64,000 bases of DNA. Source: Echinostoma caproni. Its lineage: Eukaryota; Platyhelminthes; Trematoda; Plagiorchiida; Echinostomatidae. Every line of letters begins with the position of its first letter. Within the stretch, counting starts at the first letter, position 1. Shown one piece after another: positions 3,861-40,886 of this stretch. The notes below the pieces were generated by a model. It searched no databases and was not told where the DNA came from. It saw only the letters and a list, made by a program, of their open reading frames with translations. The position numbers and the translations under genes were made by a program. The stretch covers positions 70,261 to 134,260 of the forward strand of contig UZAN01039591.1 in the NCBI GenBank assembly GCA_900618425.1, given 5' to 3'.

Positions 3861-4285
3861 ACAATGAGCAATAGTATCAGCAATTATTTAAATGGAAAGT
3901 TGATTACAATGAAAAAGATCAATCAAGTACCATTTAAGATAACCTTACTGGATGATGAAGAGAAGAGGAGAAAGTAATAAAACGACGTGTTTTTTAGTCA
4001 TTTTCTCTTAGATTTGGTCAACACTTACAATGGTGCGAGGCTCTTGGACGTCAGATTATCTGTATTGATGAAACCAAATTCAGTCTGCTTTGTTCAAGAA
4101 ATTTTTTTGCGTGCACTAAGACATCAACAATGTTGAATACCAGTGACCAGTTCAAGACGAAGAAATCTGCACATCACAAGTGCTATAAATGTTGAAAAGT
4201 GGGTCCCACAACTCGGTATTGTTTGCAATGGTTGCAAACGCTCGTTGATCAATTAGTGCAAGAAGAGCACCGATCGTATCGTAAA

Positions 4286-4837
4286 GACCTTGGTAACTTG
4301 CCGTTTCATTTCATTGTGAGTCGTGTTCGTATCTCACTGGACCTTTTGGTTCATGGTGTCTGCATTTTCCTCTCTTTCCGATTGCCAGTTCCCCCTCTCC
4401 ACGGAGAAACTTCTGTCTGTCGACGGTTCCAGCCCACACCTAGACTCGGCCCACTTGCGGTTGTCTGGTGTATCCGTTCACGGGGGACATCCTGCCGCAC
4501 ACGCGAGCCAAGCATCTCACATATTTGGCGACCCTGCCAGGATGCACTGCCCCCGCAACACCGGGCTCCGGAACACTGAGGACAGTGTTCTTTCGTGCAG
4601 AGGGATAGTGTAATGACCTTGGTAACTTGCCATTCTATTTGATTATGAGTCGTGTTCATGTCTCATTGGACCTTTTCGTTCATGGTGCCTCCATTTTCCT
4701 CTCTTTCCGATTGCCAGTTCCCCCTCTCCACGGAGAACCTCCTGCCTGTCGACGGTTCCCGCCCACACCTAGACTCGGCCCACTTGCGGTTGTCTGGTGT
4801 TTCCGTTCACGGGGGCATCCTGCCAAGTATCTCACAG
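4286..4837 (+). repeat. GC-rich direct tandem duplication inserted in the transposase relic
   Basis: There are two direct units with a period of 329 bp, 4286-4614 and 4615-4837 (the second truncated). Both begin GACCTTGGTAACTTGCC. They share long near-identical runs, for example TTTTCCTCTCTTTCCGATTG and CTCGGCCCACTTGCGGTTGT. They differ by scattered substitutions, so the duplication is not an assembly echo. The block is clearly richer in GC than its neighbours. All long open frames here (both strands) are duplicated with the unit and show no known motif. Nature unknown; possibly two monomers of a dispersed tandem (satellite-like) repeat. Confidence 0.8.
4571..4590. other. Perfect hairpin in the tandem unit
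   Basis: GAACACTG-AGGA-CAGTGTTC forms an 8-bp perfect stem with a 4-nt loop at the end of the first unit. The second unit is truncated before this point, so conservation cannot be tested in the window. Confidence 0.6.
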
Positions 4838-5204
4838 TATGTGATTGTGTGTGATAACGTGCCCTGTCACTCTAAACTGGAAAAGTAGTTGCCAGGGAAA
4901 CAGTGAGCATCCTCAGATTTTCTTAGTATTATCATGCGTTGAAACGGATTGAAACGAAATGGAGCATCACGAATAGTTACATAAAAACGGAGCAGCTAAA
5001 CACAACATGCTTTTCGTTGGGGTGCAAATGGTACCAATAATCAACCGGAGGCGTTTATTCCATTTCATTAAAAAATAATCAACAGTTGGATATTATTTTC
5101 ATTACGGACGAAGGAGGAGTCATCTATGATCTGTGTGGCGAGTGCTCGGTGGGGAAGACCTAGCTGCACTCGTCAAACTTATCGGATAATTTATGTTAGG
5201 TGTC

Positions 5205-15224: not shown

Positions 15225-16935
15225 CAGCATCGAATTTGGTAACAACAAAGTTTCCAATCTGTTCTAACTGATATGACGCAATACCTAATGATCTGTTCGT
15301 ACCATACCCAGTGATTCACTAATTGTTGAGAAAAAATTGCAGTTGACATTGCTTTGCTCTTGTATTCGATTAAACCGTGTCAGATGGCAGTGGGTGATCA
15401 TAACTCACAGATCAATTCACATACTTCCTGAATCGGTTGTGTACCTAGTGCGGAAGGCAGACCGGTCTGCTTCGACCTTTCACTGGTCGTTAAAAGTAAC
15501 TCACAGTAGTCCATCATTGCAAGATTGACTAAAAGAAAAAGGATAAAGCAGATGTGGTTTGATAGAACTCATCAAGTTTGAGTTTTCGGTAATCGTGCGA
15601 ACAAATCAACCGTCTTAATCCGCTAAAATAAAAAACGGCAGGTTTATCTGTGAAAAAATGCACCATTTTCTACAGACGGGGCGGGTTCAGAGCGGAATGA
15701 ATGAAATCCAGAAGATACCATTGAATAGAGAAAAGTTGAGTAATAATGTGAAAAGGATTATGTCTACACAACCGCCCAGCTCAGTTCAGAGTAGAAAAAA
15801 TGTCACTGTTTTCCACCTACATGGTAGATAGCTCGTTTACACAATCTTACGTGGTAACATGCGGGAAACACTGCAGAGTGGCATCCGCGGTGCAAATTAA
15901 AATTCTATCTTATTGGACATTCAGTATTAAGACAACCATGGGTAGACTAGTTTACCGACCTCTACTTAATACCTTATGGAGCAACCAGCTTTTAGGATCA
16001 CGGATAACTGTGACGCATTCATACCACCATCTGTCTCATTCACGAAACTATAAACGATCGCACAAATGCAACCAGTATGTGAAAAGATGCAACGGGTTGA
16101 GCAGTGATATAATGAAGATAAGAAACCATGCGATGAAGCTGATTAGCGCAAGGAGAGACCGAAGGTAACAGATTGTTGTCATCCGCATTCTGGATAGAAT
16201 GTATTAATCAGCCGGGGAATGACAGAGGAAAATACTATTTCTGTTAGCTAGTGCGTATGTTCGAATTTGATCTTACTATTCAGGTGAAATACTGGTAATG
16301 CTTTCATCATTGTTACCATTGTTAAGTACCTTGTCAGGTGTGCATTTTAATGTCAGAAATACGTAGGCAATCGCATTTGATTCAAAAGACTCGGTTTTAA
16401 TGAAGAGAAACTCGGCCTCAATGGAATGTACTCATTGGGCTATTGAGGGCTCAGACTGACTCCACTCATGCAATAAATCATGCTCACTCACATTCACGTC
16501 TGGGTATAATGGACGACTTATCGATCCATCTTGACCTGATTCGCTTCCTTACCCGACCGACAAAGGTCAATTAACTCCAGGTTCCTTCATCGCATCGATC
16601 AACGATCCCGAGTGGAACGTGTGTGTGTGTGACAGGGGTGGGGTGGGGTGCTAGGGGGGGGGGAAGCCCACCTCACACCACTGAAACATTCATCCTCCCT
16701 CGGTAACTCACTCAAAAAGTACTTTTGTTTGTTTACGGAGAAGTGAGTTCATTCGGACTGGATGGGTTTTAGACAGACCCGGTTCAATCGGTGACATTTG
16801 ACGGCCTAACCACCAACCTAACCACCAATCTTGTGGGATTCACAAAGCAGTGCGGTTGGTTGAATTCACTTGAAGTTACAACGGATTCAATTGAAGTTGA
16901 AAAGATACAGTTGTACCGGTAAATGGCAAGGTACG
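15225..16935 (-). repeat. R1 repeat, copy C (longest contiguous copy)
   Basis: This is the only copy in which left and right R1 blocks are directly joined. It aligns in reverse complement with 575-1050 and 1490-2800. The segment homologous to the candidate exon of copy A is broken by stops. Its donor GTGAGC has become a GGGC-like sequence, and the sites flanking the homologue of the 26-nt exon are mutated. The plus-strand frame at 15800-16168 lies across it and has no independent support. The left-block end contains a G-rich insertion (16619-16663) absent from the other copies. Confidence 0.75.
16619..16663 (+). other. (GT)n plus potential G-quadruplex
   Basis: A (GT)7 run is followed by four G-tracts of at least four (16635-16638, 16640-16643, 16645-16648, 16654-16663), which fits the G4 pattern with loops of 1, 1 and 5 nt. 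It is unique to R1 copy C. Confidence 0.7.
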
Positions 16936-27664: not shown

Positions 27665-27709
27665 TAATGCTCAAATGCGATGGGAATGTTTGTGATGACC
27701 AATAAAGAA

Positions 27710-27752
27710 CACTGGACAGCTGTTTCGTTCTGTTCGGGACTCGTCAGCAGTG
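27710..27752 (-). ncRNA. Type I hammerhead ribozyme with palindromic stem III
   Basis: On the minus strand the elements in order are as follows. Stem I 5' arm CACUG (27752-27748). Core box CUGACGA (27747-27741). Stem II GUCC/GAAC with loop CGAACA (27740-27727), three pairs and one C-A mismatch. Core GAAA (27726-27723). Stem III as the palindrome ACAGCUGU (27723-27716, sharing the last core A). Cleavage-site C (27715) in the triplet GUC. Stem I 3' arm CAGUG (27714-27710), fully complementary to the 5' arm. All invariant core positions are present. A palindromic stem III cannot fold as a normal hairpin with a loop, so activity would be expected mainly through dimer formation, as reported for other minimal hammerheads. 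Activity is not shown by sequence. Confidence 0.8.
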
Positions 27753-27774
27753 CGTACGTTTTGTGTCTCTGTCA

Positions 27775-27785
27775 GGATTCGAACC
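27775..27785 (-). promoter_or_regulatory. RNA polymerase III B box
   Basis: GGTTCGAATCC on the minus strand matches the consensus GGTTCGANTCC exactly. Confidence 0.8.
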
Positions 27786-27817
27786 GCGATCAGTTTGGTC
27801 GGGACTTCAAACCCTTA

Positions 27818-27828
27818 TCCCTGAGCTA
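27818..27828 (-). promoter_or_regulatory. RNA polymerase III A box
   Basis: TAGCTCAGGGA on the minus strand fits the TRGCNNAGNGG consensus except for the final base and lies at tRNA-like spacing from the B box. Confidence 0.7.
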
Positions 27829-27860
27829 TACGGTCGACTTGTATTCTTTTCAGTCCAGGT

Positions 27861-28244: not shown

Positions 28245-28740
28245 TTTGATATTCGAGGAAACCTTGAACTCAATGGAATTTACTCACTTGATTATTGAAG
28301 GCAGACTCGAGTAACGATGCACGTCAACATTCACAACTGATCATGGTGTTCCGACTCGTCTAGAAATGACTCGTTTTTTTGTTCGATTGACTGGGGCCAA
28401 AAACTACCGCGTTCATTTATTCACTTCTGGAGTTTACTCGATTATTGGTCACGGGCATGATATCCCCGGGGCTGGAGGACGAACAGTCACACCCCACCCC
28501 ATCGAAGGGTTTGTTCTGGCTAGGCAACTCACTGAACGTACTTTTGTTTGTTTGTGGCACAATCAATTCATTCCGACCGTATGGGGGTTATAATAATCCC
28601 GGTCAAATTGTGGGCCTGTGACTACGGAAGCAGCAACCACTTCGTGGGTATCCATGCAGAATTAAAGTGATGGACTGCTTTGAAGTTAAAACGGATTCGG
28701 TTGAAGTTCCGGTGAATTAACCTGAAGCTGCAGCGTTTGA
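28245..28740 (-). repeat. R1 repeat, copy D (left block only)
   Basis: It shares CAATGGAATTTACTCA, the TACTTTTGTTTGTTTGTGG landmark, and GAAGTT.AAACGGATTCGGTTGAAGTT with copy C (16700-16900). The right R1 block is not present upstream. The frame at 28366-28593 is not conserved between copies. Confidence 0.65.
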
Positions 28741-39683: not shown

Positions 39684-40886
39684 ATGACAACAGTTCAGAC
39701 GTGTTCTTCAAAAGCTCGCCCCATTGAACAAATACTTGTCTATGGATTTCGTGCTTATGTAACGCCGGTCATCATTGTATTCGGTTTGATCGGCAATACG
39801 TTGGTGATAACTGCTTTTGCTCGTATGCAAAGAAAATCGCCTTGTAGATTCAATATGTACGCAATTGCCATTGCTGTGGCACACACATTGGAACTTATAT
39901 TCAATGCGTTTTTGGACGATTTTCTTGGTCGTGGATTATATTGGTTAAGCGATTGTTCCCTCTACCTGAAAGTGGACGTTCACTCCGACTTCATGTGCAA
40001 ATTTATAAGCTATGTGCCAAAAACCGCCGCTTTAATCTCTACCAGTCTACTGATCGTGTTCAGTATTGACCGTGTGTTGACCGTCTACAAGCCACTACAA
40101 TTCCGTGGAGATCATCGCTTGCGCACTGCCGGTTTTGGGATCAGTTTTGTGTATTTGATAAGCTTTATGCTATACCTCCCACTACCAATCCAATCGGGCA
40201 TCACAATTAACAGCGAACAATCCGGAGTATTGTCCAAAGAATGCGTTTACTTGGACCCGTTAAACATCGGCACTCAGTACACACTATATCTTCACATATT
40301 CGGCTCCAACATCATTCCGTCCACGATAGTGCTAATTACTAATGTGATGATATTTCTCAAGCTGAGAGATTTATTTCGTGAACGAACACGTCTCTGTATG
40401 AATATGGAACGATCCAGTGCGGAGACACGGCGTGTGCTTGGACATCTTGGGATGACCACCATATTCTCGGTCATCATGCTACCTATACTTATTGCAATAT
40501 TATTACGTCAACATGCGGACTATCACAATTATCATGATATCTATCCAGAATATGAGAAAAAACTAGTTCAGCTTTCAAAACTTTTCAGTTCCGTTGAGTC
40601 AATTTATTTTGTGACCGAATTCCCCACATTTTACATATTTCTGCCTATGTTTCGTTCGGAATTGCGCCACATGTTTACTCGTCCGTGTGCACGGAAACCG
40701 ACAGACAATGTGGCCCAAAGATTGGTCAAATTCACACCTCGAGTGATGCAGTCGTTTATAGGTGATCAAGCGCGTACCACCCCCTCGTCGTCCATTCGTG
40801 GAACTTTAATTGAATCGGTCAATACGGAGGACACAAACCGTCACAGTTTGAATGTCAACAGTGCGACAGGCGAGAAATCATACTAA
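39684..40886 (+). CDS. Rhodopsin-class GPCR, divergent flatworm-type orphan
   Basis: An uninterrupted 400-residue frame with seven membrane segments at about residues 25-48, 55-78, 103-127, 147-169, 200-226, 251-274 and 300-322. It is a plasma-membrane receptor of unknown ligand. The family marks present are GN in segment 1 (N38), the disulphide pair C105-C187, DRV in place of DRY (129-131), P212 in segment 5, P267 in segment 6, and P314/Y317 of the NPxxY site. Key residues are changed: the Asp of segment 2 is H67, the Trp of segment 4 is absent, the CWxP box reads IMLP, and NPxxY reads FPTFY. A Ser/Thr-rich cytoplasmic tail (332-400) offers phosphorylation sites. The ATG follows an in-frame TGA at 39675-39677 and starts a single coding exon. 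Such changes are typical of flatworm-restricted rhodopsin-like orphans; a peptide ligand is possible but not shown. Confidence 0.93.
   Translation: MTTVQTCSSKARPIEQILVYGFRAYVTPVIIVFGLIGNTLVITAFARMQRKSPCRFNMYAIAIAVAHTLELIFNAFLDDFLGRGLYWLSDCSLYLKVDVHSDFMCKFISYVPKTAALISTSLLIVFSIDRVLTVYKPLQFRGDHRLRTAGFGISFVYLISFMLYLPLPIQSGITINSEQSGVLSKECVYLDPLNIGTQYTLYLHIFGSNIIPSTIVLITNVMIFLKLRDLFRERTRLCMNMERSSAETRRVLGHLGMTTIFSVIMLPILIAILLRQHADYHNYHDIYPEYEKKLVQLSKLFSSVESIYFVTEFPTFYIFLPMFRSELRHMFTRPCARKPTDNVAQRLVKFTPRVMQSFIGDQARTTPSSSIRGTLIESVNTEDTNRHSLNVNSATGEKSY

What the first reader, a model, noticed from the sequence alone, without database searches (positions are those of the whole stretch)
27665..27860. Hammerhead ribozyme downstream of a tRNA-type promoter in a SINE-like element
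Directly seen: A and B boxes at tRNA spacing, followed by a hammerhead with every invariant core position, a fully complementary 5-bp stem I and a GUC cleavage triplet. Established: schistosome Sm-alpha repeats have the same order, and hammerheads also occur in Penelope-like elements and retrozymes. Inference: this is a related but distinct ribozyme-bearing SINE in this flatworm, possibly making circular or multimeric small RNAs.
Basis: partly seen in the sequence, partly recalled or inferred. Interest (0 to 1): 0.85.

Follow-up and report, generated by a model that had tools for sequence, protein, structure and literature searches.

The report
Mirror-paired ribozyme jumping element
A parasitic fluke's genome holds many copies of a small jumping element with a transfer-RNA-type promoter motif and a predicted self-cutting RNA; most of the copies examined sit as mirror-image pairs and some read past the end of one unit, so the RNA was likely circular or joined end to end when it was copied into DNA, probably from both ends of the broken target.

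Summary
The window copy is a worn fragment (C·A mismatch in helix II). The window is from a fluke nearest to Fasciolidae. Its 426.5-Mb assembly holds many copies. The full unit is ~320 nt; the window has u71-236.

Of 39 fetched loci, 29 show a left arm inverted against a right arm, head to head. Left arms end at u36-47 (27 of 29), right arms at u227-249 (28 of 29). Flanking direct repeats score >=10 in 24 of 40 loci against 3 of 310 shuffled pairings. Arms run through the unit junction; five exceed one unit.

Best reading: a hammerhead retroposon with a Pol III-type promoter (a retrozyme) whose circular or multimeric RNA was reverse-transcribed from both ends of a staggered break, resembling Penelope-type insertions. 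Circle versus multimer is open, the enzyme is untested, and no activity was measured. A second hammerhead family with another tRNA-like head is paired in two of three loci. New variant of a known kind.

The parts
27673..27838 (-). Truncated copy of the ~320-nt unit, u71 to u236, 89% identical to the reference copy; single arm
27818..27828 (-). A-box-like TAGCTCAGGGA (last letter differs from the family majority TAGCTCAGGGG)
27775..27785 (-). B box GGTTCGAATCC
27754..27757 (-). GUAC directly 5' of stem I, as in the S. mansoni ribozyme
27709..27753 (-). Type I hammerhead, core complete, C.A mismatch in helix II
27716..27723 (-). Self-complementary stem III ACAGCUGU
27714..27715 (-). Predicted cleavage after C at 27715 (GUC)
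   Evidence: position follows from the alignment; cleavage not tested
27707..27708 (-). UC directly 3' of stem I, as in the S. mansoni ribozyme

Best explanation
The window holds one worn, truncated copy of a repeated ~320-nt hammerhead retroposon with a tRNA-type promoter motif (a retrozyme), which is likely transcribed by RNA polymerase III and predicted to cut its own RNA, and whose genomic copies were most likely written from circular or multimeric RNA primed at both ends of a staggered DNA break. Steps. (1) Shown: A box, B box and type I hammerhead in fixed order in one unit. (2) Inferred: Pol III reads the unit; the reference unit has no run of four T, so transcripts could pass through it. 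(3) Predicted: the hammerhead cuts after u194; ligation would give circles. (4) Shown: inserted arms run from u320 into u1, 11 of 29 left arms pass the cut site and five arms exceed one unit, so the template was not simply a ribozyme-cut linear monomer. (5) Shown: two preferred 3' ends, u36-47 and u227-249, lie at opposite outer edges of head-to-head pairs flanked by direct repeats of 10-20 bp. (6) Inferred: the two 3' overhangs of the break each primed a cDNA, at one of two places on the RNA, and the two 5'-truncated cDNAs were joined in the middle. (7) Inferred: the enzyme is of Penelope type, because head-to-head pieces with 8-10-bp duplications are described for Penelope elements.
For: Unit, promoter boxes and ribozyme recur together. 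29 of 39 loci head-to-head with the two end classes and differing inner breakpoints. Flanking repeats: score >=10 in 24 of 40 loci (20 of the 29 two-armed) against 3 of 310 shuffled pairings. Ribozyme-selected sample: 19 of 30 two-armed, 7 of 30 with such repeats against 0 of 176 (two of the 30 repeat loci of the first sample). Arms of one locus are closer to each other than to other loci in 24 of 31 loci, sign test 0.0017, so both often share a source. Inner starts coincide in only 3 of 29, which speaks against self-priming as the usual route. Penelope anatomy: PMC3846280, passages.
Against: No RNA data and no activity test. Repeated same-strand stretches within one insertion are closer than controls in only 8 of 13 comparisons, and in L150 and L141 not at all, so a circle read twice is not shown. 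In 7 of 31 loci the arms are no closer to each other than to other loci. Ten of 39 loci are not paired, the window copy among the unpaired. L118 is counted as paired on a neighbouring insertion that the fetched stretch cuts off; L134's flanking repeat is unit sequence and is not a real duplication. In the ribozyme-selected sample the end classes are looser: 9 of 19 left arms at u35-47, 15 of 19 right arms at u227-249. 20 of 49 ribozymes have a broken core or an insertion. The helper enzyme was not searched: the PF01541 request did not complete.
Confidence: 0.6

Rival explanations
1. The template was a linear multimer transcribed from tandem genomic units; the ribozyme plays no part in integration.
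For: L116 is a direct dimer. Repeated stretches within L150 and L141 differ as much as stretches of different loci.
Against: No longer array was seen in the loci fetched; L119, L112 and L153 have near-identical arms. These facts fit a circle but do not prove it.
Confidence: 0.3
2. Self-priming: one cDNA folds back on itself and copies itself, giving the inverted arm, as proposed for Penelope elements in PMC3846280.
For: Head-to-head order; inner starts equal in L104, L111 and L112; in L112 the arms are identical over 98 positions.
Against: 26 of 29 pairs have unequal inner starts, and the two outer ends belong to two different unit positions, which folding back does not give.
Confidence: 0.15
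3. Twin priming by an ordinary LINE, not a Penelope element.
For: Duplications of 10-20 bp, AT-rich sites; twin priming of LINEs is known (recalled). PMC4918200 compares 15-bp duplications at Nematostella repeats with those of LINEs.
Against: Two fixed ends in most loci, and no poly-A-like tail at either end.
Confidence: 0.3
4. The ribozyme is a dead relic and the family is an ordinary SINE.
For: The window copy has a C.A mismatch; 20 of 49 ribozymes have a broken core or an insertion.
Against: The majority ribozyme is fully paired with a complete core. Between the Rfam consensus and the window copy 5 of 14 pairs changed on both sides and stayed paired. A second family changed a helix II pair on both sides.
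Confidence: 0.2

Closest known systems
Schistosome Sm-alpha and Sj-alpha hammerhead SINEs (PMC2576457, PMC2770079: passages; PMC8490949: passages and ribozyme section)
   Same: A and B boxes with a type I hammerhead; about the same unit length (335 bp is given for one Sm-alpha-like W element); the ribozyme shares GUAC and UC next to stem I with the S. mansoni ribozyme of PMC7118274.
   Different: Fasciolid-like fluke; tRNA-Gln origin of the head not recognisable here; paired insertion not mentioned in the passages seen; sequence kinship outside the ribozyme untested.
Metazoan non-LTR retrozymes (PMC7229834: abstract and passages; PMC7761336: section 9 and passages)
   Same: Type I hammerhead in a unit of 170-400 nt, units read across their junction, duplications longer than 4 bp.
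   Different: Has Pol III-type boxes, where PMC7761336 says retrozymes seem to lack promoters; mostly paired or single insertions rather than long tandem arrays in the loci seen; circular RNA not shown.
Penelope-like elements (PMC3846280 and PMC6155905: passages)
   Same: Head-to-head inverted pieces, partial tandems, short duplications.
   Different: No reverse transcriptase or endonuclease frame in the unit; ribozyme not of the minimal Penelope type.

Membership tests
Type I hammerhead (RF00163) | Score above Rfam's cut-off with complete core and three stems | tested here: met
   50.1 bits against 34; core 12 of 12, with one broken pair in helix II; majority copy fully paired
Type I hammerhead (RF00163) | Self-cleavage | not testable with these tools
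   no assay
Sm-alpha SINE family | A and B boxes followed by a type I hammerhead | tested here: met
   against passages
Sm-alpha SINE family | Head derived from tRNA-Gln | tested here: inconclusive
   no tRNA recognised by Rfam or ARAGORN
Sm-alpha SINE family | Whole-unit sequence similarity | not tested
   full Sm-alpha sequence not held
Metazoan retrozyme | Type I hammerhead in a 170-400-nt unit without coding frame | tested here: met
   ~320-nt unit
Metazoan retrozyme | Tandem or multi-unit copies with duplications over 4 bp | tested here: met
   arms across the junction, five over one unit, duplications 10-20 bp; long arrays not seen
Metazoan retrozyme | Expression as circular RNA | not testable with these tools
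   no RNA data
Penelope-like element | Reverse transcriptase, often with GIY-YIG endonuclease, in the element | tested here: not met
   a ~320-nt unit has no room for it
Penelope-like element (works like) | Head-to-head inverted piece with a short duplication around the whole insert | tested here: met
   against PMC3846280
Penelope-like element (mobilised by) | Shared ends with Penelope copies of the same genome | not tested
   PF01541 request did not complete

The most novel reading that the evidence does not exclude
A ribozyme-made RNA circle that carries its own Pol III promoter has two fixed priming places, about 120 and 200 nt apart around the ring, and both 3' overhangs of one staggered break are extended on it at once: a two-ended, target-primed insertion of a circular RNA, run by Penelope-type machinery. 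This would be the missing integration step of animal retrozymes.
Probability: 0.35. Interest if true: 0.85.

Novelty: new variant of a known kind. Interest (0 to 1): 0.62.

Why it matters
How ribozyme-bearing RNA circles return to animal genomes is described as unsettled: PMC7761336 (section 9, read) finds no promoter and no motif that reveals the helper element, and PMC7229834 (passages) names Penelope elements only as strong candidates. Here the insertion scars are informative: two preferred ends, head-to-head arms, one duplication around the pair, and reading across the unit junction. That makes the integration step testable by sequence and by assay, and places hammerhead retroposons with tRNA-type promoter boxes outside the schistosomes. 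In my paper searches (open-licence library only; one search listed 20 of 626, none with the word hammerhead) I saw no report of such an element in fasciolid-like flukes, nor of this paired anatomy for retrozymes.

Tried and rejected
Other copies inside the window: none beyond a 13-base match. A duplication around the window copy: none above chance. Penelope pseudo-LTR as identity: rejected, since the unit has Pol III-type boxes and the ribozyme has a stem III. Chance hammerhead: rejected on Rfam's E-value; my own lax descriptor is far weaker (5 strand hits in 300 shuffled windows). Minimum-energy fold of the window ribozyme is not the hammerhead, but neither is that of the Rfam consensus, so it says nothing. 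Outer part of stem I: not significant, 25% of random arms do as well. B box plus hammerhead core in other collections: 2 viral and 71 prokaryote stretches, of which only L001, L002 and L067 keep hammerhead stems. GUAC plus hammerhead pattern in viral contigs: 15 stretches, read by eye only. Lower-scoring hammerheads as possible Penelope copies: the 6 that I fetched are the same unit. Gene context: nine nearby frames without a Pfam match. An earlier count said that the second family is paired in 3 of 3 loci; on rechecking it is 2 of 3 (L163, L164; in L136 both matches fall on one piece).

Full report
WHAT IS THERE. On the minus strand of 27673-27838 lie an A box (27828-27818), a perfect B box (27785-27775) and a type I hammerhead (27753-27709; 50.1 bits, cut-off 34, E 5.3e-10), the only hammerhead in the window at E<=10. 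The core is complete (12 of 12) and 31 of 45 positions equal the Rfam consensus; of 14 consensus pairs 5 changed on both sides and stayed paired, 1 changed on one side, 1 broke (C-G to C.A in helix II) and 7 are unchanged. GUAC before and UC after stem I equal the letters of the S. mansoni ribozyme in PMC7118274 (passage); that they lie in the tertiary-contact loop is recalled. Stem III, ACAGCUGU, is self-complementary, as is the consensus ACGCGCGU: a monomer can form 2 bp with a 4-nt loop, a dimer 8 bp.

WHOSE GENOME. A receptor encoded at 39684-40883 is 65% identical to a Fasciola hepatica protein, 64% to one of Fasciolopsis buskii and at most 53% to schistosomatid hits: a fluke near Fasciolidae (Echinostomatoidea), not a schistosome (Strigeidida). 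The assembly has 426.5 Mb in 12,689 contigs.

COPIES. The DNA search scored 40 of 2576 first-look candidates and gave 47 matches, 85-91% identical apart from the window itself and mostly bounded at window 27673 and 27838. The Rfam search scored 74 of 66,429 loose candidates; all 74 are over the cut-off. Three contigs with the same place are in both lists, so 111 places were seen (my count). The 30 fetched places of the second list carry the same unit, as do 6 of 6 lower-scoring ones. These are lower bounds, and both samples are the best-scoring ones, not random.

THE UNIT. Reading outward from 39 fetched loci shows that the window fragment belongs to a ~320-nt unit whose end joins its beginning. 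In unit numbers (reference copy L116:546-865; u1 is arbitrary) the A box starts at u81, the B box at u124, the hammerhead spans u156-200 and the predicted cut follows u194. Majority A box TAGCTCAGGGG and B box GGTTCGAGTCC fit the consensus; the reference unit has no run of four T. The majority ribozyme is fully paired; 29 of 49, window included, have an intact core without insertion; C.A at the window's broken pair occurs in 6 of 49.

INSERTION ANATOMY. Of 39 fetched loci 29 consist of a left arm in reverse and a right arm in sense orientation, 5' ends inward. The outer 3' end is u36-47 in 27 of 29 left arms (the others u26 and u316) and u227-249 in 28 of 29 right arms (the other u292). One of the 29, L118, is a neighbouring insertion cut by the end of the fetched stretch; the copy that brought L118 in is a single arm ending at u39. 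Inner breakpoints differ between loci, so the pairs arose anew. The other ten: eight single arms (two ending at u39-43, five at u234-252, one at u316), L107 with two arms in direct order, L116 a direct dimer. Flanking direct repeats score >=10 in 24 of 40 loci, window included (20 of the 29 two-armed), against 3 of 310 when left and right flanks are shuffled between loci; the 24 are 10-20 bp long, 21 of them 10-14. One of the 24, L134, is unit sequence and not a real duplication. The window copy scores 5. In the ribozyme-selected sample 19 of 30 are two-armed; 9 of 19 left arms end at u35-47 and 15 of 19 right arms at u227-249, and 7 of 30 have repeats scoring >=10 against 0 of 176 (L152 and L154 are L135 and L109 again).

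TEMPLATE. Arms read from u320 into u1. Left arms pass the cut site in 11 of 29; five arms exceed 320 nt (L112, L114, L119, L129, L130) and L116 spans 538 nt. A ribozyme-cut linear monomer cannot give these; a circle or a multimer can. Arms of one locus are closer to each other than to other loci in 24 of 31 loci (362 differences against 470 expected in 3539 columns; sign test 0.0017), and share rare letters more often than random pairs (0.99 against 0.17 per 100 columns). Against a simple circle: same-strand repeats within one insertion are closer than controls in only 8 of 13 comparisons, and in L150 and L141 not.

MECHANISM. Shown: the anatomy above. Inferred: two staggered nicks leave 3' overhangs; each primes reverse transcription, one near u240, one near u39; both cDNAs stop at variable points and are joined. 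Self-priming (PMC3846280, passages) predicts equal inner starts; 3 of 29 have that (L104, L111, L112). PMC3846280 describes for Penelope elements inverted terminal pieces, mostly head to head, with 8-10-bp duplications, the closest described anatomy. A Penelope enzyme was not tested: the PF01541 search did not complete.

SECOND FAMILY. In L163, L164 and L136 a different unit has a tRNA-like head with a GGTTCGA B box and a hammerhead (41.2 and 35.6 bits in L163) whose helix II is GACC/GGUU instead of GUCC/GGAC. It lies head to head in L163 and L164; L136 has one piece. ARAGORN sees no tRNA there.

COMPARISON. Sm-alpha shares the order of parts (PMC2576457 and PMC2770079, passages; PMC8490949, passages and ribozyme section). 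Retrozymes share size, ribozyme and multi-unit copies (PMC7229834, passages; PMC7761336, section 9; PMC4918200, section 10, which already lists the schistosome repeats with their tRNA among putative retrozymes). Small RNAs of S. haematobium include hammerhead-like clusters overlapping SINE/tRNA and LINE/RTE-BovB repeats (PMC5993326, passages). A study of F. hepatica transposons holds no mention of hammerhead or ribozyme (PMC11270206, term search). Added here: a fasciolid-like fluke, a second head, and a recurrent two-ended insertion scar.

LIMITS. No RNA data; fragmentary assembly; loci chosen by score; arm borders come from BLAST segments and may be off by several bases.

Noticed in passing
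L163:349-718; L164:2216-2655; L136:2194-2371 (same genome): Second tRNA-headed hammerhead family, helix II GACC/GGUU; head to head in L163 and L164.
   Followed up: partly
L001:9749-9878 (IMG/VR contig): A tRNA gene followed within about 8 nt by a hammerhead-like motif (22.7 bits, below the cut-off of 34) in a tRNA-rich viral contig. One paper search listed nothing on point.
   Followed up: partly
L002:6530-6679 (IMG/VR contig): A weak hammerhead-like motif (16.7 bits, E 0.17; stems by my descriptor) just after a tRNA in a tRNA array.
   Followed up: partly
L067 (Propionicimonas MAG), reverse strand near 4956: B box plus hammerhead core with stems by my descriptor only.
   Followed up: no
window 39684-40883 (+): Rhodopsin-type receptor, 400 aa, called allatostatin/somatostatin receptor in Fasciola by the source.
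   Followed up: partly
window 28269-28708, 16417-16898 and about 587-1051 (inverted): Pieces of an older, unrelated repeat, 71-90% alike, one about 430 nt from the hammerhead copy.
   Followed up: no
window 4281-4486 and 4610-4815: Direct repeat of 206 nt, 92% identical, 329 nt apart.
   Followed up: no
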